Of a DNA stretch of 16,167 nt, positions 1 to 15,173 are shown in pieces; position 1 is the first letter of the stretch, and each line of letters starts with the position of its first letter. Under the pieces are notes generated by a model. It saw nothing but the letters and a program-made list of their open reading frames with translations. It was not told the origin of the DNA and ran no database searches. The translations under genes were made by a program, and so were the position numbers. The DNA is from Chloroflexota bacterium (GTDB lineage Bacteria > Chloroflexota > Ktedonobacteria > Ktedonobacterales > Ktedonobacteraceae): the NCBI GenBank assembly GCA_005879655.1, contig VBJK01000066.1, positions 1 to 16,167 of the forward strand, read 5' to 3'.

Positions 1-1250
1 GCCTCAGATACAGTCGTCTGATCATTAGCGGAACGAGCGATAGTTTCAATCATTTGCGCCTGTCGTTCTACTGCGCTGTAGATCGAGTTGAGTGCACGTC
101 CGGCTTCATCAGCCAACTGAGATCCCTTCACCACCTCTTGCGTGCTATCTTCCATAGCAACCACAGCATCGTAGGTATCACCCTGAATACTCTTAACGAG
201 AGTAGCAATACGTTTCGTTGATTCTGTTGAGCGTTCTGCCAGGAGGCGGATCTCATCGGCAACCACAGCGAAACCACGTCCATGCTCACCAGCCATAGCA
301 GACTGAATAGCAGCATTCAGAGCGAGCAAGTTCGTCTGATCAGCGATATCTTCAATGATACGTACGATTTCACCGATCTCGTTAGAACGCTCACCGAGAC
401 GTTTAATTTTCTTTGAGGTTTCCTGCACGTTTTCGCGAATGAGCATCATACCCTCAATCGTTTGACGCACAGATTGCTGACCATGAGCCGCGTTATGTAG
501 CGCTTCCTGGGCCACCTCCACGCTCAACTGAGCATTGCGAGCAACAGTCTGGATAAAGATAGCCAGAGCCTCAACGGCTTCAGTAGTCTGACTGATCTGA
601 CCCACCTGCGTTTCAGACGCCTGAGCCAGCTCTCCTGAACGATCGAGAATGCGTCGTGTTGCATTAGTCACCTGCACAGCCGTCGATTGTACGCGACCCA
701 CAACCTTGGCCAACTCTTCAATCATATAGTTAAAAGAGTCAGCCAGAACGCCTAGCGTATCGGGTGTCACCTCAGCTTGCACGCGCAGATCACCATCACC
801 GACTGCACTGACTTCTTGGAGCAACTTTTCGATTTGTGCTTGCAGAGCGGCAGCATCGCCACCAGCATTGCCGAAAGAGGCTCCACCGGCAGCATTGCTC
901 TGATTTTCCAGAAGTTGATTGATAGAGGAACACAGCATCGCAAAATCATCATCACCAGCAACCATTGCGCGCGCATTGCGATCTCCACTAACATAATCGC
1001 GACATGCCTCCGCCACCGTCTGAACGCGCTCCTTAATCTTGCGTTGCACAATATAATTGACAATAAGGACCCCTAATAAGACCACAATAGCACAGAAAAC
1101 TATTACAAAGATAAACGTTGTACGATCCATAGCGATAAAGAGGAAACCCAGAGCGGCAAAAGCTAAAACAGGAATAGCTGTCGAAGCAACCAATCCCATC
1201 TGCATCAATGCATCTACGGTCATACCACCTTTATTACGATCAGAATTCAT
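1..1250 (-). CDS. pilJ: Methyl-accepting chemotaxis protein, PilJ/PixJ-like (3' end outside window)
   Basis: Translating the minus strand from the ATG at 1250 gives an open frame of about 416 codons reaching the left edge, so the C-terminus is missing. A strong AGGAGGT lies 7 bases before the ATG. Two hydrophobic segments (about residues 17-40 and 45-66) are separated by only a few residues, so there is no extracytoplasmic sensor domain. Two HAMP-like stretches follow (about 66-118 and 137-187), then a long coiled coil with the signalling tip near residues 295-340. The tip contains [19 protein letters not shown] and [12 protein letters not shown]. The AIQ-x-x-MAGE form of the tip is, from memory, typical of PilJ and cyanobacterial PixJ rather than of flagellar receptors (EAARAGE). 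The protein should couple through the CheW encoded just upstream to a CheA kinase, which I expect immediately downstream. The type IV pilus output is inferred from this tip and the gene order. Confidence 0.9.
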
Positions 1251-1316
1251 CCGCCAGACCTCCTGTTGATAAAACAAATATCTATATCAAGCTGGATAAC
1301 CAACTGCATACAAAAA

Positions 1317-1952
1317 TTATCCAAGGGCCTCATAGCGCTGCATTTTCTCGGAGAAAAGCAGACGTGCAATATCAAGTACTACTAACACACGATTCGCAAG
1401 TATCGCACATCCAGCAGCATAGGGGGCAGCCCAGTATGGAATAGCAGCCTGGCGCGCCTGGCTATTCATAGCGGCAGGCGGAATTGGCAGCATCTCACTC
1501 ACACCATCTACCACAAAGCAAATCACCATTTCATTGCATTGCAATGACAACAAGCGCGTGCGCGGGGTATAAGGCAGCAACTCCATATCCAGAAACATTC
1601 TAAAGTCTACCACAGAAACGATGGAGCCTCGCAGATTAATTACACCCCTTACCCATGGTACTATATTAGGAACCGGGGTAATATCGATAAAACGCTCAAC
1701 ACCTTGCACATATTCTGCCTTTACAATAAACTCACGGTCTCCCAGAGCAAACACAAGATACTGCTCTCCAACAACTGGCTGCGGAGCTGCTGCTGAGCTT
1801 TCATTCGTGTGCGCGTACCCAGCCTGTGCAAGGCGAAGCGCCGCAGCCATTGCAGCAGCAGAAGAAGTATTAGAAGACGACTGTAATTTTGCTTGTTGCT
1901 GGATCGCAGCCAATGGGTCGCGTTGCAATTTTCTCAGATCTTCGCTGGACAC
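1317..1952 (-). CDS. pilI: CheW-type adaptor protein (PilI/PixI-like)
   Basis: CheW adaptors bridge receptor tips and the CheA kinase in chemosensory arrays. The CheW domain spans about residues 62-208, with GEQYLVFALGDREFIV, the strand-turn VRGVINLRGSIVSVVDFR and a C-terminal VLVVLDIARLL. The first 60 residues are a low-complexity Gln/Ala/Ser-rich tail not typical of short CheW proteins. I chose the GTG at 1952 because GGGAG lies 7 bases before it. A longer TTG start at 1973 would add seven residues but has no ribosome site. The receptor gene begins 66 bases downstream, so the two are probably cotranscribed. The 269-base gap upstream separates it from the receiver gene and holds three stem-loops. 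Confidence 0.9.
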   Translation of the reverse strand: MSSEDLRKLQRDPLAAIQQQAKLQSSSNTSSAAAMAAALRLAQAGYAHTNESSAAAPQPVVGEQYLVFALGDREFIVKAEYVQGVERFIDITPVPNIVPWVRGVINLRGSIVSVVDFRMFLDMELLPYTPRTRLLSLQCNEMVICFVVDGVSEMLPIPPAAMNSQARQAAIPYWAAPYAAGCAILANRVLVVLDIARLLFSEKMQRYEALG

Positions 1953-2001
1953 AGAACTACTCCCTGCTGGCAAGAGGTATCACGAGCTTCCACAGTATCT
2001 A

Positions 2002-2021
2002 ATCTCTGGCAAACCAGAGAT
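2002..2021 (-). other. Stem-loop in receiver-cheW gap
   Basis: Perfect 8-base inverted repeat ATCTCTGG/CCAGAGAT around a 4-base loop, 50 bases upstream of the chosen cheW start. No T-run follows on either strand, so it is not a standard terminator. It may act in mRNA processing or stability, or as part of a leader structure. Confidence 0.5.
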
Positions 2022-2040
2022 CAGTTTGTACAGAAACCGT

Positions 2041-2063
2041 CTCAGTCAGTGCACAGGACTGAG
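2041..2063 (-). other. Second stem-loop in receiver-cheW gap
   Basis: Perfect 7-base inverted repeat CTCAGTC/GACTGAG with a 9-base loop, 19 bases from the preceding stem-loop. Together with the hairpin at 2216-2235 it makes the gap unusually rich in dyad symmetry. Role unknown. Confidence 0.45.
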
Positions 2064-2215
2064 CCGTGAGAAGCAGAAACCGTACTGGGCACACTGCAAG
2101 ATGCCCTCTATGCCCCTGCCAGTGTCAAGCACTGGATTTCAGGGATTACTCGAACCATATGAATATGACAACACCATATCAAGGCATACCGCGAATTTCT
2201 CTATCCCGACAAGAT

Positions 2216-2235
2216 GACGCCTCAAATGAGGCGTC
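2216..2235 (-). terminator. GC-rich hairpin at the end of the receiver gene (possible weak terminator)
   Basis: Perfect 8-base stem GACGCCTC/GAGGCGTC with a 4-base loop. The stop codon TGA of the receiver gene at 2222 sits in the loop and stem on the minus strand. The following minus-strand bases (ATCTTGTCGG) contain only a poor T-tract, so full intrinsic termination is doubtful. Partial termination, or protection of the upstream mRNA, would change expression of the receivers relative to cheW and the receptor. Confidence 0.4.
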
Positions 2236-2587
2236 GCACACTAGCCACTAACTCATCACCATTAAAGGGCTTTGTGATATACATATCAGCGCCCTGTCTC
2301 AAACCCCAAGCTTTGTCTAACGGAGTACTCTTACTAGTTAACAAAATGATCGGAATGTGTCTACTTGCTTCCAGACTTTTAAATCTACGACAGAGCTGGA
2401 AACCATTCTGCTTTGGTAAAACAACATCAAGGACAATACAATGTGGACGTTCTCTAAAGACCTTCTCCACTGCCTCATCTCCGTCAACAGCTGTAATAAC
2501 GTCAAAACCGTTATTGCGCAATGGAGTAACAATCATGGTCAACTCTGTCCAACTATCATCCACAACAAGTACTTTCTGCCCAGGCAT
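2222..2587 (-). CDS. CheY-like single-domain response regulator (second receiver of the cluster)
   Basis: A stand-alone receiver domain, about 121 residues from the ATG at 2587. In that numbering the acidic pair is D10-D11 (VLVVDDS), the phosphoacceptor D54 (IVLDVVLP), the conserved Thr T84 (ILLTSK) and the Lys K106 (ITKPF). All catalytic residues are present, so phosphorylation by the cluster's CheA is likely. I chose 2587 because AGGAAAGGG precedes it. An ATG at 2611 would add eight residues but has a poor ribosome site. It occupies the position of pixH/pilH. With no output domain it should act by protein contact or as a phosphate sink. Confidence 0.9.
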   Translation of the reverse strand: MPGQKVLVVDDSWTELTMIVTPLRNNGFDVITAVDGDEAVEKVFRERPHCIVLDVVLPKQNGFQLCRRFKSLEASRHIPIILLTSKSTPLDKAWGLRQGADMYITKPFNGDELVASVRRLI

Positions 2588-2618
2588 CCAATTATACCCT
2601 TTCCTAGACATGCCACAC

Positions 2619-2688
2619 CAGTGCGATGGGAGATAAGGGCTATCCCACTGACGTTCTTTACCAAGTTTGTTACGCGCACTTTGGTAAA
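2619..2688 (-). other. Two stem-loops between the two receiver genes
   Basis: The first (2619-2650) pairs CAGTG with CACTG and contains an alternative inner TGGGA/TCCCA. The second (2657-2688) pairs TTTACCAA with TTGGTAAA across a 16-base loop. They fill most of the gap between the upstream receiver's stop and the downstream receiver's start. No T-tract or promoter is evident, so a post-transcriptional role is the simplest guess. Confidence 0.4.
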
Positions 2689-2702
2689 AGAGAAAACAAA
2701 AC

Positions 2703-3140
2703 TTAGCCTCGGTATCGTAGGCGAGGTCGCATACCCTCCGGCGGAGCTGGCATACGATCTTGCCAATTGATAAGATGCTTTTTGACTGTTTGTACTAACT
2801 CTACCGAATCAAACGGCTTCGTAAGATATTCGGTAGATCCGGCTAATTTCCCCCGCATCTTATCAAACAAACCATCTTTCCCACTGAGCATAATAATGGG
2901 TATTTGTCTAAACTGCAAGTTTTTACGTATGATCTGGCAAATATGGTACCCATCCATCCTGGGTAGCTGAATGTCGAGGAGAATAAGGGCGGGCATTTCA
3001 TCGGCCACCGAAGTCAAAGCACTCAGGCCATCACTGGCCGTAATCACTCTGATGTGCTCACGTTGCAATGTCATCTGAACGATCTTGCGTACCGTAGGGC
3101 TATCATCTACTACCAGTACTGTTGGTTGAGCAGCAGGCAT
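2703..3140 (-). CDS. CheY-like response regulator (first receiver of the cluster)
   Basis: A receiver domain of 145 residues with an intact site: acidic pair D12-D13 (VLVVDDS), phosphoacceptor D56 (ILLDIQLPRMDG), S86 (IMLSGKDG) and K108 (YLTKPF). A basic, proline-containing tail of about 18 residues follows the domain (RMPAPPEGMRPRLRYRG). The ATG directly abuts the TAA of the upstream PATAN gene (stop 3143-3141, start 3140), with AAGGAGGT inside the end of that gene, so translation is probably coupled. The close pairing with the PATAN protein suggests they act together, as PixG and PixH do. In cyanobacterial PatA/PixG proteins the receiver is fused to PATAN; here it is a separate, adjacent gene. 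Confidence 0.92.
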   Translation of the reverse strand: MPAAQPTVLVVDDSPTVRKIVQMTLQREHIRVITASDGLSALTSVADEMPALILLDIQLPRMDGYHICQIIRKNLQFRQIPIIMLSGKDGLFDKMRGKLAGSTEYLTKPFDSVELVQTVKKHLINWQDRMPAPPEGMRPRLRYRG

Positions 3141-4544
3141 TTATATTGACCTCCTTTGTGTTCCTGGCGACTGGAAGCCACCATCTCTTTCGGGGGTTCC
3201 GTTAAGATTTTGCATCAGACCAACGGGAGATGATTGCATGGGATCACGACCACGGGCCATTTGTGTATTGCGATGCGCACGATAAACCTGATATTGTTGT
3301 ACTTCGTGATCGATTTCGGATAAGAATACTTTCCACGCAACGCTCAATTGGCGACCTGTATGCGAGTTGCCTACCTCATCAGTTAAGAGTGTGGTAAAAA
3401 CAAAACGCAGGAACGCCGCCAATCCCTGCACTGCCTCCCAATAGAATTCTTCCAGTTGCTCCCCTTTGACTACCTTATTGAGAGTGAGTATATCATTACA
3501 ATCAAGTTGCCCATACGCAAAGGTGACGGTATCCAAAATGGAATGTTGCTTGGCCAGCGTATGCAAGGATGGTGCAAAACGACGCTCTAGATAGCGCACA
3601 ATCTCTACTGATGGCAGTTGTCCTCGACCACGCAAGCTCCTAGCAAACTTCCCATGATGACTCAATAAACCATTAATACACTCTGATAAGGTGGTAATCA
3701 AGCCGAGGAGATGTTGTTCTGGATGAGAAGAGTGCCTTTGATAGGCTAAGGTATATTGACATTTAATGATCACATTGGAGAGATCCTGTTGTAACTCGGT
3801 CTCCATCGCCGTATCCACAACTTCAATCAAACGGAGTTCGAGCAAACGGATCATAATGCGTGCCACACGAGCTTCGGGGGTCATAAGCACAAGTGAGACC
3901 GCTTGTAAAGGTAACTCGCCATTGGCCAGACAGAGCACTTCTATATATTCCTGGCTCAGACCAAGGCTACGAACATCTTTGCTCACTTCTGGTAGCCAGC
4001 GTGCTACAGTGGTGCGCGTCAGGTGGTGAGTCATGCCTTCACCCATGATCTCTTCCCACTCATCCGCTTGGCGCAATGCCTCCAATAACACTGAATCGAC
4101 GTTGAGAGGTTGCATCGTGGTCTCTAGCGGCACAATTTGACGATGGAAAGCAAAACGCCCATTCACCCAACGCAGGGCATGGCTGATGGATTGCGTGACC
4201 GCGAATTCCAGGCAACGCTGCATCTCATTGGCACTCATCCATCCTCGCTCGACCAGCATCGCTAGCGCCATTTGCATATTGCCCTGTGCCATCTCACGAA
4301 TCATCTGAGCGCGCGGAGGGTCAAGTTTATTGACCAGACATAACATGCCTAGTAAATCAGATTGCGCCACACCCTCTTCATGTAACCCGACAATCTGACC
4401 TTTGCGCAAACTAATAGAGAGTGTCTCTGGCCCAGAAGACACAAATAACTTACCCGTTTTCTCACTCAGCGCGAGCATTTTTAAGATGGACTGGAGACCC
4501 AACGTTTGTAAGTCTCCGTCCATGATGCGGTCTTGCTGATCCAT
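3141..4544 (-). CDS. PATAN (DUF4388) domain protein with unassigned C-terminal region
   Basis: A 467-residue soluble protein. Residues about 9-165 match the PATAN/DUF4388 pattern, with an opening LQTLGLQSILKMLALSEKTGKL, a central LRKGQIVGLHEEG and a later segment ending GRFAFHRQIVPL. Residues about 190-245 (LSQEYIEVLCLANGELPL followed by a VARIMIRLLELRLIEVV helix) look like the small winged-helix segment that often follows PATAN. Residues about 250-430 are helical and unfamiliar to me, and the last 35 are polar and probably disordered. Unlike PatA or PixG it has no receiver domain; two stand-alone receivers follow and a two-receiver protein precedes it. In cyanobacteria such proteins control phototaxis through type IV pili. 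An AGGGA lies 8 bases before the ATG. An internal ATG at 4523 is possible but has no clear ribosome site. Confidence 0.88.
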   Translation of the reverse strand: MDQQDRIMDGDLQTLGLQSILKMLALSEKTGKLFVSSGPETLSISLRKGQIVGLHEEGVAQSDLLGMLCLVNKLDPPRAQMIREMAQGNMQMALAMLVERGWMSANEMQRCLEFAVTQSISHALRWVNGRFAFHRQIVPLETTMQPLNVDSVLLEALRQADEWEEIMGEGMTHHLTRTTVARWLPEVSKDVRSLGLSQEYIEVLCLANGELPLQAVSLVLMTPEARVARIMIRLLELRLIEVVDTAMETELQQDLSNVIIKCQYTLAYQRHSSHPEQHLLGLITTLSECINGLLSHHGKFARSLRGRGQLPSVEIVRYLERRFAPSLHTLAKQHSILDTVTFAYGQLDCNDILTLNKVVKGEQLEEFYWEAVQGLAAFLRFVFTTLLTDEVGNSHTGRQLSVAWKVFLSEIDHEVQQYQVYRAHRNTQMARGRDPMQSSPVGLMQNLNGTPERDGGFQSPGTQRRSI

Positions 4545-4637
4545 TCTTAAAATCCCTAGTTTCTTAATATCGACTAACCCGCAAGTTGCTCTTTGATTAT
4601 GGCAAGCGGTCTTATTCTATGCAGTCTGACACCTGTT

Positions 4638-5489
4638 CTATAGACAGACCTGCTTGATAGCACTTAATAAACGATTTATGTGGAAGGGCTTATTTACGTA
4701 TGCCACTCCCTTCCCACGCAAATACGAGTGGCGAATAGGATGTTCTAATTGAGTTAACGCGCTTACCACAACAAATGCGGGTACCCCACGTAACGAGCTG
4801 TTGGTAAGACAGCGTATTACTTGATAGCCATTCATCCAGGGCATAATGAGATCCGTCACAACGCAATGCGGGAACCAATCCACAGACACTTCCAACGCTT
4901 CCAGCCCATCATAAGCCACAATTACTTCATACCCAGGCTCGCAACTCAAGCATTGCTGTATAGAACGTGCCATTATCTCATCATCATCAACCACCAACAC
5001 CCGGCATACACCATCTTCATTCTTGCTCTGCTCGTGCAACAACGGCAAGGCCGCACCCTGAGCCTCTGCTAATACAAGGCGATGCAACACTTCCAGATAG
5101 CGCTGTAGCCGCCCCATCTCAAAAGGCTTTTCTAACAGAGCCACCGCACCTATCTGCTCTAGCATCGCACGTGACACTGAACGGCTACTCAGTACTATAA
5201 CGAAGCGGGGCTGAGACCATGTCTTATTATAGCTTTTTATGCCTTCTAATGGCAATAACCCATTTTGTAAGAATGAATTTTGCATTGCTCCACTCTGTAG
5301 CCACGCATCTACGTCGTATAACAAGACATCACCCGCCCACGCCTCCCTGCTGCTGTCTTCAAGCGTTTGCACCGCAGTCTGGACGAGGGTTTCGTATCCC
5401 CAACACTCGATATTAGTGACAAGCACTCGGCTAAAAACATCTTGCTGACCAACAATAATCTGCACACGCAACGGTCGCCACAGAGCCAT
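4638..5489 (-). CDS. Two-receiver response regulator (degenerate REC followed by canonical REC)
   Basis: About 283 residues from the ATG at 5489, chosen because GGAGG lies 5 bases before it; a TTG one codon earlier is too close to that site. The N-terminal half (about residues 8-140) has a receiver fold pattern: VQIIVGQQ, a possible phosphoacceptor in LLYDVDAW, VIVLSSRS and LLEKPF. It lacks the usual acidic pair (VGQQDVF), so it is probably a pseudo-receiver. The C-terminal half (about 162-283) is canonical, with VLVVDDDE, CVVTDLIMPWMNG, VVVSALT and VNKPF. There is no DNA-binding or enzymatic output domain. It lies 93 bases upstream of the PATAN gene on the same strand, so it probably belongs to the chemosensory cluster and may supply the receiver function that the PATAN protein lacks. 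Confidence 0.87.
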   Translation of the reverse strand: MALWRPLRVQIIVGQQDVFSRVLVTNIECWGYETLVQTAVQTLEDSSREAWAGDVLLYDVDAWLQSGAMQNSFLQNGLLPLEGIKSYNKTWSQPRFVIVLSSRSVSRAMLEQIGAVALLEKPFEMGRLQRYLEVLHRLVLAEAQGAALPLLHEQSKNEDGVCRVLVVDDDEIMARSIQQCLSCEPGYEVIVAYDGLEALEVSVDWFPHCVVTDLIMPWMNGYQVIRCLTNSSLRGVPAFVVVSALTQLEHPIRHSYLRGKGVAYVNKPFHINRLLSAIKQVCL

Positions 5490-5655
5490 CAAAACCTCCG
5501 CTGTGGAAATTCCCTTTCAGAATAGCTTCCCTGAGTCTAACAGAGAACCTCCCTTTCCACACAAGTGTATACTAAAAACCGTTACGTATCTATGAAAAAT
5601 TACTCTCCTCACATTAAATTCTTATTAAATTGCCCCCTCTACCGGATGCTTTGTG

Positions 5656-6366
5656 TTAAGAACGAAACACATAGCCAATACCTGGCTCAGTCAAGATGTA
5701 ACGAGGTCTCGACGGTTCTGCCTCTACCTTGAGGCGCAATTGGCGCACGTACACACGCAAATAGTCCGCCTCTTCTCCATATTCAGGTCCCCACACCGCG
5801 CGTAACAATGAGCGATGCGTGAGGACTTTGCCTGCGTAGAGCATGAGCTGCCTCAGTAATTCAAACTCTGTGGGTGTTAACCGTACCTCCTGATCACCCG
5901 CACGCACCTGCCGCCGCTCCACATCCATGTAGATATATCCATCCTCACTGGTGAAGATCTCTGGATGGCCTTCTACTACAGCCTCGTTAGACTGCGCTCT
6001 GCGCAGACAGGCGCGCACACGGGCTTGTAGTTCATCATTGCCAAAGGGCTTCGTCAAGTAATCATCAGCGCCCAGGTCCAGCGCACGCACTTTCTCTTTC
6101 TCTTCTGAGACAGCCGAAAGTACGATGATTGGTGTCTGAAGCGTCTGACGTACCTGTGCACAGACATCTAGCCCGTCTAATTCTCCTGGCATACAGAGAT
6201 CAAGCAATATCAGGTCTGGCTGATGGAGGTTCACCATCTCCAACGCCTGCTTGCCATCGCCCGCCACCAATACATCATAGCCGCTCATAGAGAGGTTGCG
6301 GCGCAGTATGCGTTGAATTGGTGCCTCATCGTCAACAACAAGAATGCGTTTCCTCTTGCCCCTCAT
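5656..6366 (-). CDS. OmpR-family response regulator, KdpE-like
   Basis: A 236-residue regulator. The receiver spans residues 6-120, with acidic pair D12-D13, phosphoacceptor D56 (LILLDLCMP), S84 and K106 (YLTKPF). One extra residue appears after the phosphoacceptor loop (MPGELDG where MPGxDG is usual). A winged-helix DNA-binding domain follows (about 140-236), with VRLTPTEFELLRQL, the recognition region LLRAVWGPEYG and the closing ILTEPGIGYVF, a KdpE-style wing. It starts two bases after the kinase stop, with GGGGAGG inside the kinase's last codons, so the pair is translationally coupled. No kdpFABC potassium-transport genes are present, so the kdpE name is not applied. The target is unknown. 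The 166-base gap downstream to the next start is A/T-rich and shows no convincing terminator. Confidence 0.93.
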   Translation of the reverse strand: MRGKRKRILVVDDEAPIQRILRRNLSMSGYDVLVAGDGKQALEMVNLHQPDLILLDLCMPGELDGLDVCAQVRQTLQTPIIVLSAVSEEKEKVRALDLGADDYLTKPFGNDELQARVRACLRRAQSNEAVVEGHPEIFTSEDGYIYMDVERRQVRAGDQEVRLTPTEFELLRQLMLYAGKVLTHRSLLRAVWGPEYGEEADYLRVYVRQLRLKVEAEPSRPRYILTEPGIGYVFRS

Positions 6367-6368
6367 AG

Positions 6369-9176
6369 CTATAATTCCTCCCCTGCTTCGTGAGCTTTCT
6401 GTAAAACACTTGCATCGTTATCAGACTCTCTCCTATCTACAAAAGAGGTCTTCTCAGGAACAACAGAATATGGATGAACTGGCAACGTGAAGCGGAAGCA
6501 TGATCCTATAGCCTTCGTTGCTTCTTGCACATCAGACACTCCTTCGACCCAGATACGCCCCTGATGCGCTTCAATAATTCCTCGACAAATAGCTAATCCT
6601 AAACCATCACCATATGAGCGCAAACTATAAAATGACTTAAAGATATGCTCACGCTCACGCTCAGGAATTTCTTGACCATGGTCAATCACTTGGGCATGCA
6701 ATAGAGTATCAATACACTCCAATTTGATGACAATCTCTGTATGCGCCGGACTGTGATGTACGGCATTTTCTAGCAAGTTATAAAACACACGCTCCAGTTG
6801 TACATGATCCGCAAGCACCAATGGCAGTGCCGCTTGAAACTCCATGCGCAAGCTATGGTTCGCTAGGACGCGCTTCATTTTGGCGAGCGTCCCATGCACT
6901 ACTTCTACAACGTCGCACCACTCCTTTTCAAGGCTCAAGGCACCCATCTCAATGCGCGACAAATCAACTAGAGCATTTACTAAAACCGTGAGATGATCCG
7001 TTTCAGCTTCTATATCTTCTAGCATGGCACGCCAATCATGCTCTTCCCACGCGACATCGGACTGTAATAAGCCAGTCACAGCAGCTTTGATGGTCGTTAA
7101 GGGAGTGCGCAAGTCGTGTGAGACGGAGGAGAGCAGTGCTGAACGATTCTTCTCGTCACGCACCTGTTCCGTGACATCTCGTATATGTAGGATATTTGCA
7201 ATTAAAACGCCTTTGGGATCATAAAGCGGATAGTGCTTGAACTGATAATGATAATCAGAAGAAACATCCTCTGAACGTTTCATTCTGGCTCTGTTCATAG
7301 CTGTCTGTTCAGGAAACTGCTCCTGTATTGGTTCAGCCGCGAGCACACAACGCACTTCTTGCCGTTGTGCACTACCTTGCACCACATCATGCAGATAACG
7401 CCGTATTTCATCGGCATTGCGTACGCCAGGTAGCAGATTAGCGAAAATGCTCTCTATAGGTTCCGAGAGATCGGCCTGTTGTGTTGTCCCAAAAAGTTGA
7501 CTCGCGTATGATCCCGTTTTGAGGGGCTTGCCACATAACAATGCTGCTGCTGGATTCATATACTGGCAAATGCCATTGAGATCGACTACAAACCAGGCAT
7601 CTTTGACATCATAGGCAGTTTGCTTAAACTGCATGATGAAGCGCCCCCATTCGCCTACTATGCCGGTACGAATCAACGCCTCTTCTACATTGCGCGTCAA
7701 CATGAGCAGGGTATCGGCGAGCATTTCTTTCTGCTCTTCCAAGGGCTTTTTTTGTTCGGGGACTAGCTGTACTTGTGAGGCCAAAACTGGGGGCAGGCCA
7801 TCTGACGCCTCATTATCTACTTCCGGGGCACTTCCACTCCGGTCAGCAGCAATCATAGCTTGTAGATCCTGCTCCTCTGTAGTGAGCAGATGAGCACTGA
7901 CGAAGTGTAACAGGCTGGAGAAGCTCACACCAAATGTACGCTGTGTCTCTTCACGAACACGGGCAAACATTTCAAGCTCTTTTAGACATTGCCCACGCAA
8001 GGCTTGCTCGTCAACATTCCCCGCAACGCTGGCTTCGTCGATGGTTTGTGCTCCAGACAAATTCTGCACATAGATCTGCTCAAATTGCTCGATAGTTTTT
8101 TGAAAACGGCTACGGCGCTGTGCCGCTTCGAGCTGTATCCCATTATGGATGGCCACCGTTACTTGGCTGGCAAACAGGGAGAGAATATCCGTTTTCAGCG
8201 GCGTAAAGCCACCTGGCTCTGGCGAGCAGAGCAGTAGAGCGCCAAAAACGGTGGTTTCCGTTACTAACGGATAGCAGAATATAGAATGAACGCCCAGCTC
8301 CGTGGCAAAGATACGGCTATCGGGAAAATTCGTATCCACTGCTATATCATGAGAAACGTGAGGCTGACGACGTAGTAATGTGCGGCCAATAATACAGGTC
8401 TCTCGCACCGATGACGGACGACCCAATACCCGGCTTACGGCGGCTGCATCCAATCCTGATTGAGCAGCTAATGACAACCGTCCCTCACGTCCATCATGCA
8501 TGATGATCATTGATGCTACATCCAGTGTATTTGCGATACCAACCACAATTTGATTGAAGATAGCAGAAAGATCCATCTTCGCGTTTAAAGCGCGCGTGAC
8601 ATCTTTGAGCACCTGACGCTGCCGGTCTTGAATCGCTACCGTCCCACCCAGCTGAGCACTTTCAATCGCCGTTGCTAATACGCGAGCGACAGCGTTAACA
8701 AAGCGTTGGAGTGTCGTGTCATCATACGTGTGAACAACGGTACTTCCTAATTCAAGCGTACCCAAGACACGATCTTCAACCATTAGAGGTGCAATCAATG
8801 TCGAACGCAATTGCTGGGAACCAACGAGCAGGGCATCACCACAGCAGGCAGGTGAACCCTCAAGGCCATTGGGATGGTCTCTCACAATGAGGTTTGGAGC
8901 AGACAGAATCTGCTCTAGCATAGAGCCAGTGAGAGGATGCTGATGATGAGAGGCGCGCCAAGCACCTCTCTCTCGCTGGCAGACAGTTACACGCACCGCC
9001 TGACGATCATAGCGCAAAAGTCCTATTCCAAATATATCGAACGGTATCGCTTGTTCTAACTCTACCGCTAGACTGGTATAATCAGGTTTTACTCCGCGCA
9101 CACTAGACACGATACGTGCAACACGCTCAACAAGTGCAGACTTTTCTAGTATGTCTGTATCAATTTTCGCTTCCAT
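6369..9176 (-). CDS. Soluble GAF-GAF-PAS sensor histidine kinase, KdpD-like catalytic core
   Basis: A 935-residue kinase with no membrane segment, so the signal is probably cytoplasmic. Domains in order: GAF-like (about 15-175), GAF (about 185-346), a helical linker (350-505), a PAS-like region (about 510-670, with WFVVDLNGICQYMNPAAALL), HisKA with phosphoacceptor H687 (SSVSHDLRTPLTTIK) and HATPase_c with N804 (NLLENAVHHSP), an F-box (HIFKSFY) and G2 (GDGLGLAI). The G1 motif reads DHGQEIP where DxGxGIP is usual, so the second glycine is replaced by glutamate. A Cys-Cys pair at 111-112 in the first GAF domain could be redox- or ligand-relevant, but this is speculation. HisKA and HATPase resemble KdpD, without the KdpD N-terminal domain or transmembrane region. 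Its partner is the adjacent regulator. Confidence 0.93.
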   Translation of the reverse strand: MEAKIDTDILEKSALVERVARIVSSVRGVKPDYTSLAVELEQAIPFDIFGIGLLRYDRQAVRVTVCQRERGAWRASHHQHPLTGSMLEQILSAPNLIVRDHPNGLEGSPACCGDALLVGSQQLRSTLIAPLMVEDRVLGTLELGSTVVHTYDDTTLQRFVNAVARVLATAIESAQLGGTVAIQDRQRQVLKDVTRALNAKMDLSAIFNQIVVGIANTLDVASMIIMHDGREGRLSLAAQSGLDAAAVSRVLGRPSSVRETCIIGRTLLRRQPHVSHDIAVDTNFPDSRIFATELGVHSIFCYPLVTETTVFGALLLCSPEPGGFTPLKTDILSLFASQVTVAIHNGIQLEAAQRRSRFQKTIEQFEQIYVQNLSGAQTIDEASVAGNVDEQALRGQCLKELEMFARVREETQRTFGVSFSSLLHFVSAHLLTTEEQDLQAMIAADRSGSAPEVDNEASDGLPPVLASQVQLVPEQKKPLEEQKEMLADTLLMLTRNVEEALIRTGIVGEWGRFIMQFKQTAYDVKDAWFVVDLNGICQYMNPAAALLCGKPLKTGSYASQLFGTTQQADLSEPIESIFANLLPGVRNADEIRRYLHDVVQGSAQRQEVRCVLAAEPIQEQFPEQTAMNRARMKRSEDVSSDYHYQFKHYPLYDPKGVLIANILHIRDVTEQVRDEKNRSALLSSVSHDLRTPLTTIKAAVTGLLQSDVAWEEHDWRAMLEDIEAETDHLTVLVNALVDLSRIEMGALSLEKEWCDVVEVVHGTLAKMKRVLANHSLRMEFQAALPLVLADHVQLERVFYNLLENAVHHSPAHTEIVIKLECIDTLLHAQVIDHGQEIPEREREHIFKSFYSLRSYGDGLGLAICRGIIEAHQGRIWVEGVSDVQEATKAIGSCFRFTLPVHPYSVVPEKTSFVDRRESDNDASVLQKAHEAGEEL

Positions 9177-9325: not shown

Positions 9326-9670
9326 CTACATAGATGATAAACAACGTGAAGTACCCCTAAGCTTTCGCCCAGGAGCTTCTACAGGTTTCCCTGTTGGCTC
9401 CTTCCAAACCAAAAGGTGTTGTTTCCCTTTGCACAGGATATTAACTGCTGCATTTGTGTCTCTATCTAGCTCACACCCACATTCGCATGAATGCCAACGT
9501 ACAGATAGCTCTTTCTTGCGAATAGTACCACATCCGCTGCATGCTTGGCTAGTATATCTGGGGTCCACTTTCACAATAGTACGACCGGCCCATGCTGCCT
9601 TGTACGTACACATCTGTTGAAAGGTGCCCCATCCAGCGTCTAATATTGATTTATTGGCGTGCTGTCTTCG
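9326..9670 (-). pseudogene. tnpB: TnpB (IS200/IS605 OrfB) C-terminal remnant
   Basis: An open minus-strand frame of about 114 codons encodes the end of a TnpB nuclease. It contains KSILDAGWGTFQQMCTYK, AGRTIVKVDPRYTSQACSGCG, the zinc ribbon (C-x2-C then C-x-C) and the last RuvC motif, LDRDTNAAVNIL. Intact TnpB proteins are about 350-420 residues, so the N-terminal two thirds, including the other RuvC catalytic residues, are missing. The frame is closed upstream by TAA at 9671-9673. An ATG at 9613 lies inside the domain and is not a real start. No tnpA is seen. The frame appears to read past the element's inferred right end (near 9346) into flanking DNA for its last six codons. This is a dead insertion-sequence relic. 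Confidence 0.85.
9346..9402 (-). ncRNA. Putative omega-RNA scaffold/right end of the IS605-type relic
   Basis: Overlapping the tnpB 3' end, the minus strand folds as an outer stem AGGAGC/GCTCCT (9397-9402 with 9371-9376) enclosing ACAGG-GAAA-CCTGT (9381-9394), which is capped by a GNRA-type loop. An alternative stem pairs GAAGCTCC with GGGGTACTTC nearer the end. The segment closes with TTCAC at 9346-9350, similar to right-end sequences of IS605-type elements. In this family the 3' end of tnpB encodes the guide-RNA scaffold, and the bases just beyond the end (about 9326-9345 here) would be the guide. The structure is seen; the RNA identity is inferred. Confidence 0.45.
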
Positions 9671-9846: not shown

Positions 9847-10968
9847 TCAACTTCCACGTTTTGCGTACCCCGTTAACTCAACATAGCCCAGGCCATCCAC
9901 GGGCTTGCCAGCATACTGTCCCTCAAGAGTGACGGCCCCCTCCCAATAGGTGTTTCCCGTGGAATTGAGCGTTACCAGTTCTTGATCTTTTAATTGTGGA
10001 ACAATGGTCAAACTCATAGGTAAGTGCGGATCGTCAATAGTAAGCCGCCAACCAGAAGGATAGGTAATGCCAGTGATAGGACTTGCCCATTTATCCAGCA
10101 CTGTCACATGTAATGCATTGCCAGAGAGTAAGTGATCGAGACCATCGGCGTCAATGTAGCCAACATAGGTTGAGAGTGTCCGGCCAGTTGCATCGCGAAT
10201 GAGGTAGACCATCATCTCGGTATTGTCATTCAATTGTATGCTATACCAATCCCAACCACTATCACCCAGCGTCAAGAAATTTCCCCACTGATGATCCATC
10301 CACGCCTGACCCTCGATACTGAGTTGCTGACCGTGATCAACAATTGTCCCAGTCACTGCCATGCGGGTACGCGAATAGTAGTATGAATATCCCGCCAAAC
10401 CATAGGTAATGAGACCATTACCATTATGCAATGTTGGTGGCTTGCGTCCCACTAGCTGCAAATTGATGGCATAGTCCTTCATCGCTGCGACCAGCTGATC
10501 TTGTCCATTTAAGCCTTGCACAGACCAGTCCCCTACGCGCACATCAATACCCCTTGCTCCGCTAAGAACCGGTGTAGACGACGTAATACGCCGCTGATCG
10601 TAATGGAACTCACCGCGTGTGATGTCGCTGATCGCAAAATGCGCCAGATAGATGGGTAGGAAATTACCGCGCGCTACTTGGAAGACAACTAGCTCAAAGC
10701 CATAGCTGTGCTGCTGACCATCTGCTTGGGTCGCTACAAAATGCCCTGTATAATACCACCACTCGGTGAGATTGTTATGCGCTCCTTCATCCTCTGGCAA
10801 GCGAATAGGTGGTAGCTGCTGTGCTACCTGTTTCTCACTTACTGGCGGTAATTGCTGTGAGGTACTAATCACGCCAGGAAAAGAACAGGAGGAGAGCATG
10901 ATTCCTAATAATAGACAAATTGTCGGAAAGTTCGCAAAGCGCTGCTTATATCTCAATACTCCACTCAT
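9847..10968 (-). CDS. AttH/CrtC-like lipocalin-fold lipoprotein
   Basis: A 373-residue protein with an N-terminal signal ending in a lipobox (LSSC, Cys28), so it should be a lipoprotein outside the cytoplasmic membrane. The mature part matches the AttH/carotenoid-1,2-hydratase-like superfamily, with EWWYYTGHF (about 69-77), YGFELVVFQ, MDHQWGNF (about 225), GWDWYSIQLNDN and a closing DGLGYVELTGYAK. Family members include CrtC, but most AttH-like proteins have no known reaction, so I assign no substrate. The ATG overlaps the exporter's TAA as TAATG, with GGAGGAG just upstream, so the two proteins are made together. AttH-like genes elsewhere often sit beside ABC-type permeases; here the partner is an MMPL/RND exporter, which suggests handling of a hydrophobic substrate. 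No carotenoid biosynthesis genes are in the window. Confidence 0.88.
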   Translation of the reverse strand: MSGVLRYKQRFANFPTICLLLGIMLSSCSFPGVISTSQQLPPVSEKQVAQQLPPIRLPEDEGAHNNLTEWWYYTGHFVATQADGQQHSYGFELVVFQVARGNFLPIYLAHFAISDITRGEFHYDQRRITSSTPVLSGARGIDVRVGDWSVQGLNGQDQLVAAMKDYAINLQLVGRKPPTLHNGNGLITYGLAGYSYYYSRTRMAVTGTIVDHGQQLSIEGQAWMDHQWGNFLTLGDSGWDWYSIQLNDNTEMMVYLIRDATGRTLSTYVGYIDADGLDHLLSGNALHVTVLDKWASPITGITYPSGWRLTIDDPHLPMSLTIVPQLKDQELVTLNSTGNTYWEGAVTLEGQYAGKPVDGLGYVELTGYAKRGS

Positions 10969-13286
10969 TAGTCTCCTCCAACTTGTACATCTCGCTGTTT
11001 ATCTTTCAGCGTCTTATCATCCTGCACACATGCACGTTCAGTGGTCAGCACTTCAGCTAAAGCAGGAGGACGGTGCTGGACGCCAACAAAAGGCAACCAC
11101 CAGTTCCAATCACCCAACAAGCGCATTGTTGCCGGAACCAGCAGACCACGCACCAATGTTGCATCTAAGATAACGGCTAAGGCCATACCAAGCCCCAACG
11201 CTTTCACTAAGATCATATCTGCGGTGGCAAAACAGGCGCTCACGACAATCACAATGACTGCTGCACTGGTAATAATAGCTCCACTACGCTGCAAACCGAG
11301 CGCGACAGCTTGTGTATTGTCACCAGTCTGCCAGAAAGCTTCCTGCACACGCGAGAGCAGAAAGACCTCGTAGTCCATGGAGAGGCCAAACAGCGAACAG
11401 AAGAGCAAAATGGGGCTGGACGCTTCCACAAAGCCCAGTGGCGTAAAACCAAGGAGTTGATGTAAGAAGCCGTTCTGAAAAATGACGACTAATGCCCCAT
11501 AACTCGCCGTAATCGAGAGTGTGTTCATCACGATTGCTTTGAGTGGCAGCACCACTGAGCGAAACAAGAAAAGCAGGACAATGTAGGTCGTTAGGGCCAC
11601 AATCAGTATTGCTCTGGGAAAATCCGTATAGAGGGTATCTACATAGTCCATATTGCCTGCCGTCGCGCCATCTACCAGCACAGAGATACCATGCCCCGCA
11701 GACGTATTGCGTATCGTGAGCACCAACTCTTGCGAGTGTGGATCAACCATGCCGTACTTGCTGACTACTTGCACCATCATGGTATTGCCCGCCACGGTAG
11801 ATCTGGCGAAAGCGGCAAGATAGGGGTCGCTAATCTGTTGCGCATGAGTATACAGCAATTCGTACTGCTCTAAGGTGAAACGAGGATCAGCGCTGACAAT
11901 ACTATCCACACGCTCCACACGAGGATCGGCCTCAATGCGCTTGACATAGTAATACAGATCACGAATATTGTCCGGCAACATCACGTCGCCTTTCGTCTGT
12001 ACAGCTAGAATGATCGGTGTCGTTTCGCGCTGATTAAAATGTTGAGCGAGCAGACTGAAAGCCTGGCGCGATGGGACATCCGCTGGCAAAATGGAGGCGT
12101 CAGGCGCGGAGAAGCGTACGCCCAGAAAGGGGAGGCCAAAGCCAAGCAACAGGCATAGTACCGGCAGGAATACACGCACAGGATAGCGCATCACCAACTG
12201 CGAGAGTCGATACCAGAAACCATGCTCTAGCTCACTCCGGCTACCAGTTGAACGTCTCCACAAACGCGGCAAACGTACCGGCCAAGCATTCACTTTGAGA
12301 CCCATGATGGAGAGGATCGCAGGTAAGAGTGTCAAAGCGGCCAGTACAGCTAACATGACCACCATGACGCCACCCATACCAACTGAGCGCAGCATATTAA
12401 TGCGAAAGAATATTAAGCCGAAGAGGCCGATAGAGACAGTTAAACCAGAGAAAGCCACAGCACGCCCAGCAGTCGTTACCGTCACTACGACTGCCTCATC
12501 AATATCCCGCCCATGCGCTATCTCTTCCCGAAAACGACTGACCATGAATAACGAATAGTCTACGCCCAAGCCAAGACCAAAGAGCGTGGTAATGTTCAAG
12601 ACGAAGATAGATAATTCGGTGAGATGACCAAGCCCGAAGATTAAGGCGAGCGAGACAACCACGGCAAAGCCACCCACTAATGCGGGGAGCAGGGCCGCGA
12701 TCACTGACCGAAAGACAAACAGTAGTGCAATAAGTGCAAAAGGAAAGGCAAGCAGTTCGGCACGACGTAAATCTCGTTCACTGACGGACTTGATATCTTC
12801 GTAGAAAACGGGACCGCCCCCAATACGGTATTGCAGATCCGGCACAGCTTGCAGGCGCTGTTCTAACTCAGGTAATAACTTGGGAGCGCTATCGGGATTG
12901 GGCTTGAGTTCGATATTCACGTATGCGGCCTTACGGTTCTGTGCGATCTGACGGGGGTTATCCTCAAAAGTGACAATACGTGCCAGCTCAGACCAGCCGT
13001 TGATGCGTGTTAATGACTGTTGAACCTCTTGCACAAATTGTGGATCATCTACGGTATACCGCTCACTGGTATAAATAACCTGTACGATGGTCAGGTTGAG
13101 ATGCAGTTTCTGCACGAGCAGATCAATCGCCTTTTGCGACTCGGCATCAGGGTTGTAAAGGCCACCTGAACGTAATACCTGACTTGCCTGTGGGGCAAAA
13201 GGGAGGGCAACAATGACGGCAACCATCCAGCAACCCACGATCCACCAGCGGTAACGAGTGGCTATCTTGCCTAGATGGACGAACAT
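10968..13286 (-). CDS. MMPL-family RND-type membrane transporter
   Basis: A 772-residue integral membrane protein with the duplicated MMPL layout: TM1 (about 14-32), an outer domain (33-175), five TMs (about 178-330), a cytoplasmic linker, TM7 (about 370-390), a second outer domain (391-555) and five TMs (about 558-720). Each half has the proton-relay motif GxxxDY: GLGVDYSLF (D243) and GLSMDYEVF (D638). A polar tail of about 45 residues follows. Family members (mycobacterial MmpL, actinobacterial homologues, hopanoid transporter HpnN) export lipids or other hydrophobic compounds using proton flow; the substrate here is unknown. The ATG at 13286 has AAAGG 7 bases upstream and lies about 83 bases after a predicted transcription start. 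It is the first gene of a two-gene operon with the AttH-like lipoprotein. Confidence 0.94.
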   Translation of the reverse strand: MFVHLGKIATRYRWWIVGCWMVAVIVALPFAPQASQVLRSGGLYNPDAESQKAIDLLVQKLHLNLTIVQVIYTSERYTVDDPQFVQEVQQSLTRINGWSELARIVTFEDNPRQIAQNRKAAYVNIELKPNPDSAPKLLPELEQRLQAVPDLQYRIGGGPVFYEDIKSVSERDLRRAELLAFPFALIALLFVFRSVIAALLPALVGGFAVVVSLALIFGLGHLTELSIFVLNITTLFGLGLGVDYSLFMVSRFREEIAHGRDIDEAVVVTVTTAGRAVAFSGLTVSIGLFGLIFFRINMLRSVGMGGVMVVMLAVLAALTLLPAILSIMGLKVNAWPVRLPRLWRRSTGSRSELEHGFWYRLSQLVMRYPVRVFLPVLCLLLGFGLPFLGVRFSAPDASILPADVPSRQAFSLLAQHFNQRETTPIILAVQTKGDVMLPDNIRDLYYYVKRIEADPRVERVDSIVSADPRFTLEQYELLYTHAQQISDPYLAAFARSTVAGNTMMVQVVSKYGMVDPHSQELVLTIRNTSAGHGISVLVDGATAGNMDYVDTLYTDFPRAILIVALTTYIVLLFLFRSVVLPLKAIVMNTLSITASYGALVVIFQNGFLHQLLGFTPLGFVEASSPILLFCSLFGLSMDYEVFLLSRVQEAFWQTGDNTQAVALGLQRSGAIITSAAVIVIVVSACFATADMILVKALGLGMALAVILDATLVRGLLVPATMRLLGDWNWWLPFVGVQHRPPALAEVLTTERACVQDDKTLKDKQRDVQVGGD

Positions 13287-13521: not shown

Positions 13522-13565
13522 TAGATATCTATAGAAAAATCTCATTCTTCTAGGGAGTATTGAAG

Positions 13566-14780
13566 ATGCAACAACAGGGGCAGCTTAGTTGGAAAGATAG
13601 AAGACGTCAGAGGCGTAAGTGGAACATCTTTGGGAGTGCAGCATTTGTTATCATCATCTCCATTATCATAACCGCCACTTTCAGTCTAATTGGTACGCTT
13701 TCTCCTACTACAGGTACTGCAATAATTGGAAGTGTAGCACTTTTGCTTACCTTTCTGACTTGGCGATATCCGCGTCCACCGGCCCTACCAACGTCCGCCC
13801 CGAGTGCCGGGGTGGACACAGTCACATTGCAAAACACAGGGAGTATAGCGATTGCACCTCCTGTAGTTACCGTGCCTGCTATTAGTCCTTTTAACGCGTT
13901 GGTAAGACTGCTTGACCCGAAGAATTTCTATGGAAGGTTAAGCGAACGAAGTACATTGGTAGAAAAAACTCGCCAGAAAGCATCGACCTCAATAGTAGGA
14001 CCACGCAGGATCGGCAAAACGTGGCTATTGCAATACTTGATGCTGGTCGCACCGACAGAATTGGGGGCAACTTATCATCTAGTGGATATGTCGGCGCAAT
14101 TGGCTGACTTTAACACACTGATTGATTTTGTTGAGTCCGTTTTCCAAGAGCTAAAGAAGCAGATGCAACCTGGAACGATAGAGAATACCATCCTGGAAGA
14201 ATCGTTAGTAGCGCTCAGGGAAGAGCAAGCGAAAGCTGAGCCTAATATACTCTCTGTGTTAGAGAGGGCCATGCGAAATCTTTCGCGAGAAGGAATCGTG
14301 TCAGTACTATGCATCGATGAATTTAACAGTATCACGAACAGTCCCCAGCGCAAAAGGCAATTTAATCTGGACTTTTTCAGGAGTTTACGTGGAATGGCAG
14401 ATAGCCAGAGCACGAGCTTGGTGCTAGTTATAGTCAGTCAAGACCCGCTGAAAAAGATAGTGGGGAGGGTTGGACACGAAAGCGGATTCTTTAACATCTT
14501 CAACCATATAAGGCTCGGATCTTTTAGTCTGGAGGAAGCAGAAGATTTTGTGCAGACGAAAGGGGATCAGGCCCAGTTTTGTGACCTTGAGAGAGATTAT
14601 CTACTGAAGCTGGGTGGAAGGGGGCGGTGGATATGGCGCAAGTACTGGCCGGTGCTGCTAGAGCAGGCAGGTGAAGTAATATGGTCACATAGAGCGCCTG
14701 TCACTGGTTATCACCAACCTGGAGAGAGGCAATATTGGAAAATGGTGAAAAGGAAAGTAGTAGAGAGATCGGTATTCTGA
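13566..14780 (+). CDS. Membrane-anchored P-loop ATPase (AAA/STAND-like), unknown function
   Basis: About 404 residues from the ATG at 13566, with AGGGAG 8 bases upstream; a TTG two codons earlier is too close to that site. A basic N-terminus (RRRQRRK) precedes two membrane segments (about 23-44 and 50-66) and a Pro/Ala/Thr-rich linker (68-108). The ATPase domain starts at NFYGRLSER (about 120). It has Walker A GPRRIGKTW (145-153, K151), Walker B VLCIDEFN (D251, E252) and a sensor-like strand LVLVIVSQDP (about 285-294). The ATPase part resembles archaeal/ORC-like and STAND ATPases (AAA_16 type) with both catalytic acidic residues present. The C-terminus (about 350-404) is short and shows no recognisable effector or repeat domain. 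It is clearly paralogous to the ATPase encoded about 400 bases downstream. Positive-inside topology places the ATPase in the cytoplasm. Function unknown; a signalling or defence role is only a guess. Confidence 0.82.
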   Translation: MQQQGQLSWKDRRRQRRKWNIFGSAAFVIIISIIITATFSLIGTLSPTTGTAIIGSVALLLTFLTWRYPRPPALPTSAPSAGVDTVTLQNTGSIAIAPPVVTVPAISPFNALVRLLDPKNFYGRLSERSTLVEKTRQKASTSIVGPRRIGKTWLLQYLMLVAPTELGATYHLVDMSAQLADFNTLIDFVESVFQELKKQMQPGTIENTILEESLVALREEQAKAEPNILSVLERAMRNLSREGIVSVLCIDEFNSITNSPQRKRQFNLDFFRSLRGMADSQSTSLVLVIVSQDPLKKIVGRVGHESGFFNIFNHIRLGSFSLEEAEDFVQTKGDQAQFCDLERDYLLKLGGRGRWIWRKYWPVLLEQAGEVIWSHRAPVTGYHQPGERQYWKMVKRKVVERSVF

Positions 14781-14909
14781 GGTATAATAGAGTCAGAGAT
14801 CTGAATAAACAAAGAGTACCAGTGGCTTATAAGACTCTTAAGAGGTGATGACAGATACTTGTTAAAGAGTATGGACAGCGCGACTTCTCAGAGAAATGGG
14901 TGAGGGATC

Positions 14910-15173
14910 TTGGCAACACAGAAGCAGCAAAATGAAAATAAACCACCTATGCAGAACAACACACAGTCGCTGCGTTACCTTTTATTGGTATCTATTGGCT
15001 TGGCATTACTGGGAATAGTGATTGCTTTAACTCTCCCAGCGTTGAATAATCAACAGAACTGGGTTACCATTTTGTCAATTGCTTTGGCTTCCCTTAGCGC
15101 TGTGTTCAGCCTACTCCAATCGCTACCTACGTTGTCCAGAAGAAGCTATAGACCCGGAGCAATTGCAGCTTGA
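14910..15173 (+). CDS. Small two-membrane-segment protein
   Basis: An 87-residue frame opening at TTG 14910, the first possible start after an in-frame TGA, with GAGGG three bases before it. A polar Gln/Asn-rich N-terminus is followed by two membrane segments (about 23-43, LLLVSIGLALLGIVIALTL, and 50-70, WVTILSIALASLSAVFSLLQ) and a short basic tail. The layout resembles the N-terminal anchor of the upstream ATPase, so this may be the same anchor as a separate polypeptide placed before the XRE-ATPase. Its TGA (15171-15173) overlaps the start region of the next frame. The gap 14781-14909 holds a TATAAT at 14783 without a -35 and a 10-base palindrome, CTCTTAAGAG, at 14835-14844, but no gene. The start is uncertain. 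Confidence 0.55.
   Translation: MATQKQQNENKPPMQNNTQSLRYLLLVSIGLALLGIVIALTLPALNNQQNWVTILSIALASLSAVFSLLQSLPTLSRRSYRPGAIAA

What the first reader, a model, noticed from the sequence alone, without database searches (positions are those of the whole stretch)
1..5489. Pil-Chp/Pix-type chemosensory cluster with a split PATAN-receiver module
The order PATAN, receiver, receiver, CheW, PilJ-like receptor is seen directly and matches cyanobacterial pixGHIJ(L) and Pseudomonas pilGHIJ(chpA), which control type IV pilus motility. Here the PATAN protein has no receiver of its own, and an extra two-receiver protein precedes it. If the host is a filamentous Chloroflexota-like bacterium, which is inference, a twitching or taxis pathway would be unexpected and worth describing.
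Basis: partly seen in the sequence, partly recalled or inferred. Interest (0 to 1): 0.7.

Follow-up and report, generated by a model that had tools for sequence, protein, structure and literature searches.

The report
Pilus-type chemosensory cluster without pili
These filamentous soil bacteria carry a complete, conserved copy of the kind of signalling system that steers pilus-driven crawling elsewhere, yet their relatives' genomes show no twitching-pilus motors or clear flagellar switch, so the system has probably been turned to another job.

Summary
On the - strand lie a two-receiver protein, a PATAN (DUF4388) protein without receiver, two receivers, CheW and a cut receptor. The host is a ktedonobacterium (Chloroflexota). 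No genome is held for it, but relatives extend the picture: a ~1,500-aa CheA with two Hpt domains and a C-terminal receiver follows the receptor in 25 of 27 relatives; the other two contigs end first. The receptor's signalling domain is closest to that of an Acinetobacter locus in pilGHIJ-chpA order. By parts it is of the Pil-Chp/Pix (Tfp) kind. The twitching reading is not supported: of 27 class genomes with the close-type PATAN protein, none has a T2SSF (PilC/TadB/TadC) or PilT-family match, two have a full-length TadA/VirB11-like ATPase, and FliG matches are absent or weak (at most 31 bits). The 467-aa PATAN protein is a class hallmark: PATAN, winged-helix-like part, helical domain; its stop lies within 4 bases of the receiver's start in 25 of 28 loci. 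The receptor has no extracellular sensor but, in relatives, a long Q/N/G-rich tail. Best reading: a Tfp-class system, conserved with intact active sites, rewired to a non-pilus output, perhaps filament polarity or development. The output partner is unknown.

The parts
1..1250 (-). Chemoreceptor (PilJ position), cut by the window's left end: two adjacent hydrophobic segments, no extracellular domain, HAMP-type segment, signalling hairpin two heptads per arm longer than Tsr's
1317..1973 (-). CheW coupling protein (PilI position)
   Evidence: CheW 100 bits
2222..2611 (-). Single-domain receiver REC2 (PilH/PixH position), phosphoacceptor Asp kept
2703..3140 (-). Single-domain receiver REC1 (PilG position; PixG's receiver), most conserved protein of the cluster
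3141..4544 (-). PATAN (DUF4388), winged-helix-like part and helical domain, 467 aa, no receiver; stop codon directly abuts the REC1 start
4638..5492 (-). Accessory protein: degenerate receiver plus intact receiver
5656..6366 (-). OmpR-type response regulator next to the cluster (in 22 of 28 loci)
6369..9176 (-). GAF/PAS histidine kinase, 2 bases before the OmpR-type regulator (this kinase family in 19 of 28 loci)

Best explanation
This is the Ktedonobacteria version of a Tfp-class (Pil-Chp/Pix-type) chemosensory system, kept in a lineage without twitching pili and rewired to a non-pilus output. Shown: gene order, domain content, kept catalytic and phosphoacceptor residues in close relatives, conservation, and no detectable twitching motors in relatives' genomes. 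Inferred: receptor-CheW-CheA arrays phosphorylate the two Hpt histidines; phosphate goes to REC1 and REC2, with the CheA receiver as a sink; REC1~P acts through the separately encoded PATAN protein, as the fused receiver is thought to act on PATAN in cyanobacterial PixG; REC2 antagonises, as PilH does. Input does not come through a periplasmic sensor: it may come from the membrane/HAMP segment, the Q/N/G-rich cytoplasmic tail, or the related further receptors. The output is most likely the positioning or activity of a cell-surface, polarity or developmental machine of the filament.
For: CheA follows the receptor in 25 of 27 relatives; L005 ends in the receptor, L008 inside the next ORF. Two Hpt, HATPase, CheW, receiver and no P2 match in 3 of 3 scanned. 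In 22 CheAs over 1,350 aa (3 shorter or split ones left out) Hpt2 His, N, G1, G2 and receiver Asp/Lys are kept in 22, Hpt1 His in 21. REC1 Asp/Asp/Asp/Ser/Lys 27 of 27 found. Receptor: top of 4,319 plasmid-collection records is an A. baumannii receptor in REC-REC-(CheW)-MCP-CheA order (48.9%, 262 bits; next species among 40 listed 189); gap-free with it, and 14 residues per arm longer than Tsr. REC1's top hit is the first receiver of that locus (132 bits, next 115 among 12 listed). Motors: of 27 close-type genomes T2SSF 0, PilT family 0 at E 1e-10, full T2SSE domain 2. REC1 median identity 90%, PATAN protein 70%, neighbour IsoDH 76% among up to 12 chosen loci.
Against: No output partner is identified; no experiment. 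CheAs with several Hpt domains and a receiver are shared by the Tfp and ACF classes (PMC10782961, passages), so architecture alone does not say Tfp. Tree support for the Pil-Chp side is moderate: receptor 89/85, CheA 88/71, receivers 91/68; cyanobacterial PixJ and PixL fall elsewhere. Long (40H) hairpins also occur in flagellar receptors (recalled); the best PDB match is an aromatic-acid chemoreceptor and the best NCBIfam one CtpM, far under its cut-off. REC2 has no specific PilH match. In 5 of 11 cluster CheAs (L135, L136, L137, L139, L140) a strict pattern found no first Hpt histidine. Seven close-type genomes have weak FliG_C matches over Pfam's cut-off (23-31 bits). Many class genomes are MAGs of unstated completeness. 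SepF, one PatA partner, was found in 0 of 8 genomes. The window's own CheA was not seen.
Confidence: 0.5

Rival explanations
1. It still steers a pilus: a divergent, unrecognised T4P or a Tad-type machine.
For: T2SSF proteins occur in 13 of the 17 class genomes with the distant-type PATAN protein; the locus typed by Pfam (L124: TadA-type ATPase, T2SSF protein, receiver-ATPase) has a Tad layout and L125 looks alike by ORF sizes. PATAN proteins bind PilB in Synechocystis (PMC10519157, PMC9090330, passages).
Against: 0 of 27 close-type genomes have a T2SSF match, with every candidate scored, and none a PilT-family match, with part of the candidates scored. A paper reports T4P genes largely absent in Ktedonobacteraceae, though broadly present in two other families of the class (PMC13374853, passages).
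Confidence: 0.15
2. An ACF-like, gene-regulatory pathway: the winged-helix-like part of the PATAN protein, or the neighbouring kinase-OmpR pair, makes the output transcriptional.
Against: PATAN proteins with known partners bind proteins. The kinase is among the least conserved neighbours (median 49%), and L025, L026 and L136 keep the cluster without the pair.
Confidence: 0.22
3. Gliding or another pilus-free motility of the filaments.
For: Chemosensory systems steer gliding in other filamentous bacteria (general knowledge).
Against: No such motility gene was searched for or identified here.
Confidence: 0.08
4. A decaying relic of an ancestral twitching system.
For: Motors are missing in the same lineages; 5 of 17 distant-type PATAN matches run over in-frame stops, and some relatives' frames are broken.
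Against: Catalytic and phosphoacceptor residues kept in close relatives, receivers at 85-90% median identity, PATAN protein in 44 of 47 class genomes.
Confidence: 0.03

Closest known systems
Pil-Chp system (pilGHIJ-chpA order; compared with A. baumannii record CP040041.1, L117)
   Same: Order REC-REC-CheW-receptor-CheA, receptor signalling domain 49-50% identical and gap-free, CheA with several Hpt domains and a C-terminal receiver
   Different: No PATAN gene there; its receptor has ~470 residues before the signalling domain and its CheA four Hpt stretches; ChpA and PilG are needed for A. baumannii motility (PMC10519157, passages), here no T4aP motors are found
Cyanobacterial Pix-type cluster (compared with Allocoleopsis plasmid pMIC7113.02, L119)
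   Same: PATAN, REC, CheW, receptor, CheA-REC order
   Different: There PATAN and receiver are fused in one 356-aa protein and the receptor carries GAF domains; here they are two touching genes and the PATAN protein has an extra helical domain
Deinococcus plasmid clusters (L118, L144)
   Same: Chemosensory set with a separate DUF4388 gene
   Different: DUF4388 gene lies after CheA; in L118 it is 263 aa with a weak receiver-like N-terminus; one receiver, not two, before CheW
PatA of Anabaena
   Same: PATAN protein of a filamentous bacterium; acts on differentiation and binds ZipN and SepF (PMC7380572, passages)
   Different: PatA has its own receiver; SepF found in 0 of 8 ktedonobacterial genomes
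Tfp-class CheA of Chloroflexota
   Same: Tfp-class CheAs with the longest dimerisation domains are noted for Chloroflexota and Cyanobacteria (PMC10782961, passages)
   Different: The passages that I saw name no gene cluster, PATAN protein or pilus gene content for them

Membership tests
Tfp-class (Pil-Chp/Pix) chemosensory system | CheA with multiple Hpt domains and a C-terminal receiver, no P2 | tested here: met
   Relatives' CheA; also true of ACF-class CheAs; the window's own CheA lies beyond its end
Tfp-class (Pil-Chp/Pix) chemosensory system | Two receivers (single or PATAN-fused) upstream of CheW and a receptor | tested here: met
Tfp-class (Pil-Chp/Pix) chemosensory system | 40H receptor with PilJ-like tip | tested here: met
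   Two heptads per arm longer than Tsr, gap-free with the A. baumannii receptor; the 36H/40H names are recalled, and 40H is not exclusive to this class (recalled)
Tfp-class (Pil-Chp/Pix) chemosensory system | CheA core groups with Tfp CheAs in a tree | tested here: inconclusive
   With the ChpA-position protein at 88/71; PixL elsewhere at 95/74 (19 rows, no known ACF CheA included)
Tfp-class (Pil-Chp/Pix) chemosensory system | Genome encodes type IVa pilus motors (PilB/PilT/PilC) | tested here: not met
   In relatives: of 27 close-type genomes 0 with T2SSF, 0 with PilT family at E 1e-10, 2 with a full T2SSE domain, both TadA/VirB11-like; one more (G006) only short matches. The window's own genome is not held
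PATAN-REC response regulators (PixG, PixE, PatA) | PATAN/DUF4388 domain | tested here: met
   84 bits, cut-off 25
PATAN-REC response regulators (PixG, PixE, PatA) | Receiver fused C-terminally | tested here: not met
   No receiver match in the 467-aa protein; the cyanobacterial comparator has it
PATAN-REC response regulators (PixG, PixE, PatA) | Binding to the PilB motor | not testable with these tools
   Needs an experiment
Flagellar chemotaxis (Che) | Flagellar switch protein FliG in the genome | tested here: not met
   FliG_C over 90 bits only in G010, G011, G013, G014 of 47; 7 of 27 close-type genomes have partial matches of 23-31 bits, over Pfam's 23.3 cut-off alone or with neighbours, not pursued

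The most novel reading that the evidence does not exclude
A complete Tfp-class chemosensory array, with a sensorless receptor bearing a Q/N/G-rich, possibly condensate-forming tail and a class-specific PATAN-winged helix-helical effector, has become the only catalytically fit CheA pathway of non-motile, filamentous, multicellular bacteria and sets filament growth polarity or the switch to aerial growth and sporulation.
Probability: 0.3. Interest if true: 0.75.

Novelty: new variant of a known kind. Interest (0 to 1): 0.52.

Why it matters
[quoted passage not shown] Here the kind of system and the gene content of the genome disagree across most of a bacterial class, two closed chromosomes among them. 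That makes it testable what the core Pil-Chp/Pix pathway does once the pilus is gone, and gives PATAN's other known role, in cyanobacterial differentiation, a test case in other filamentous bacteria.

Full report
OBSERVATION. Six-frame ORFs and Pfam confirm the order on the - strand: two-receiver protein (4638-5492), DUF4388/PATAN protein (3141-4544, 467 aa), receiver REC1 (2703-3140), receiver REC2 (2222-2611), CheW (1317-1973), receptor (to 1250 or 1277, cut by the window's end). A GAF/PAS histidine kinase and an OmpR-type regulator (5656-9176) precede it in the same direction. The first half of the two-receiver protein is a degenerate receiver.

HOST AND DISTRIBUTION. No genome is held for the window. 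The PATAN protein's best relative with a source name is 84% identical and from a Ktedonosporobacter MAG. A scan of species genomes gave 27 loci, from Ktedonobacteria or from MAGs named only Chloroflexi, with the shared order MmpL, CrtC-like lipocalin, (kinase, OmpR regulator), (two-receiver), PATAN, REC1, REC2, CheW, receptor, CheA, isocitrate-type dehydrogenase (some loci are cut by contig ends or lack bracketed genes). Over 47 class genomes the PATAN protein is found in 44: 27 of close type (over 660 bits) and 17 of distant type (122-475 bits, 5 of them running over in-frame stops). Over 400 Chloroflexota genomes at E 1e-20 it is found in 44, the same 44 handles (at most 4 candidates per genome were scored). 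So it is a class hallmark.

CHEA. A CheA follows the receptor in 25 of 27 relatives; the contigs of L005 and L008 end before it can be judged, and in L010, L014 and L016 it is split over ORFs or short. Pfam gives two Hpt stretches, HATPase, CheW and a C-terminal receiver in 3 of 3 scanned. The 22 longer than 1,350 aa were checked by column: kinase motifs and receiver residues 22 of 22, second Hpt histidine 22, first 21. With stricter patterns and more distant rows the first Hpt histidine was found in 6 of 11 and some kinase motifs were missed, so those members are less certain. In 8 genomes the CheW family finds four proteins each: the cluster's CheW and CheA and a second pair elsewhere. I looked at the second CheA in 3 of the 8: the patterns found no kinase motif in any, and Pfam found Hpt, CheW and receiver but no HATPase in the one scanned. 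So the cluster's CheA may be the only one fit for catalysis.

RECEPTOR. Its signalling domain aligns without gaps with the receptor of an A. baumannii locus in REC-REC-(CheW)-receptor-CheA order, while Tsr lacks 14 residues in each arm (a second 36H-length receptor shows the same), as expected for 40H against 36H (class names recalled; 40H also occurs in flagellar receptors, recalled). That receptor heads 4,319 plasmid-collection records with 8,273 places (262 bits; next species among 40 listed 189). In a 33-row tree the two group at 89/85, not a starred branch; cyanobacterial PixJ-position and Deinococcus receptors fall on the other side, and two further receptors of Ktedonobacter (L141, L142) fall inside the ktedonobacterial group (98/95, starred). 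A crude hydropathy scan gives two adjacent membrane segments near the N-terminus and no room for an extracellular domain; the part after the signalling domain is 113-318 aa and 49-78% Q/N/G/S/P/F in the 27 relatives (L005's is cut, and the window's lies outside the window). P. aeruginosa PilJ lacking most of its ligand-binding domain still twitches (PMC12632253, passages), so a receptor without sensor can signal.

RECEIVERS. REC1's best match in the plasmid collection is the first receiver of the same A. baumannii locus (132 bits). REC2's listed matches are YycF/PhoB-type and unnamed receivers. Both searches reached their 5,000-record limit. A 26-row tree splits with REC1, PilG and PixG on one side and REC2, PilH and PixH on the other at 91/68; other receivers lie on both sides, so this is weak. 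Phosphoacceptor residues are kept. PilG as output and PilH as antagonist come from PMC10519157 (abstract and passages).

PATAN PROTEIN. The 98-sequence model (pLDDT 87) shows PATAN (about 5-168), a part that I read as a winged helix (about 180-243) and a helical domain (245-432). Its stop codon lies within 4 bases of the REC1 start in 25 of 28 loci. In the cyanobacterial comparator PATAN and receiver are fused. I read this as one output module encoded as two coupled genes; that they act together is inference.

MOTORS. T2SSF (PilC/TadB/TadC) is over its cut-off in 13 of 47 genomes, all of distant PATAN type, as single matches in frames of 313-431 aa, not the two-domain PilC form; 0 of the 27 close-type genomes match, all candidates scored. 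T2SSE is over its cut-off in 22 of 47, but aligned over more than 200 positions in 17 by my count, 2 of them close-type (G028, G030); G006 has only short matches (not all candidates were scored). Seven such ATPases from seven genomes rank TadA first in NCBIfam, none over the cut-off. The PilT family is over its cut-off in 0 of 47, against 5 of 14 control genomes; 14 distant-type genomes have sub-cut-off matches. FliG_C is over 90 bits in 4 of 47, none close-type; 7 close-type genomes have partial matches of 23-31 bits that I did not pursue. CheR has a match in 36 of 47; the 11 without include 6 close-type genomes, among them G002 and G003, whose loci come from closed chromosomes. A 2026 paper reports type IV pilus genes largely absent in Ktedonobacteraceae but broad in two other families, and flagellar and chemotaxis genes enriched in one of those (PMC13374853, passages). 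Completeness of the class genomes is not told, so absence in single MAGs means little. Secretin (pilQ) and pilin genes were not searched.

CONSTRAINT. Median pairwise identity among up to 12 loci chosen from the 28: REC1 90%, REC2 85% (6 loci), dehydrogenase 76%, OmpR 75%, MmpL 73%, PATAN protein 70%, receptor 64%, lipocalin 60%, CheW 59%, CheA 58%, kinase 49%, two-receiver 45% (5 loci). The receivers are the most conserved; the rest is ordinary. With intact residues this argues for a working system.

CONCLUSION. Known PATAN outputs are the PilB motor in Synechocystis (PMC10519157, PMC9090330, PMC7690835, passages) and the division machinery in Anabaena (PMC7380572, passages). The first is missing here, and so is SepF, one of the two division partners. 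The output is open; a polarity or developmental role is my best guess. Tfp-class CheAs of Chloroflexota are already on record (PMC10782961, passages), so I rate it a new variant of a known kind.

Noticed in passing
L132:7234-10865, L133:8108-11852, L134:7093-10573: A second REC-CheW-CheA set in ktedonobacterial genomes whose CheA lacks kinase motifs (3 of 3 looked at) and, where scanned, the ATP-binding domain: a probable pseudokinase paralogue.
   Followed up: partly
L141:2450-4762, L142:3710-5707: Further receptors of the Ktedonobacter genome fall inside the cluster receptor's group, suggesting that several receptors may feed the one CheA.
   Followed up: partly
window 9326-9613 -: 95-aa TnpB/Cas12f-like C-terminal fragment between the kinase and the lipocalin gene: probably a transposon remnant.
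   Followed up: no
window 13560-16098 +: Two AAA/STAND-like NTPases, the second with a helix-turn-helix, on the opposite strand to the cluster.
   Followed up: no
window 9847-13286 -: MmpL-family transporter gene overlapping a CrtC-type lipocalin gene by one base; the pair lies upstream of the cluster in many relatives. Whether it is functionally linked is unknown.
   Followed up: partly
L018:15373-20070 (residues about 140-730): Long linker between the two Hpt domains of CheA with conserved unannotated stretches (around WTPWEMQ or WSPWEVQ); no domain named.
   Followed up: no
genomes G001-G008: No SepF found (0 of 8) although Bacillus, Synechococcus and Corynebacterium controls ring; division-ring anchoring in this class may differ.
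   Followed up: no
genomes G010, G011, G016, G017, G022: Distant-type PATAN matches run over one or two in-frame stops; not examined whether this is decay, a matching artefact past the gene's end, or assembly error.
   Followed up: no
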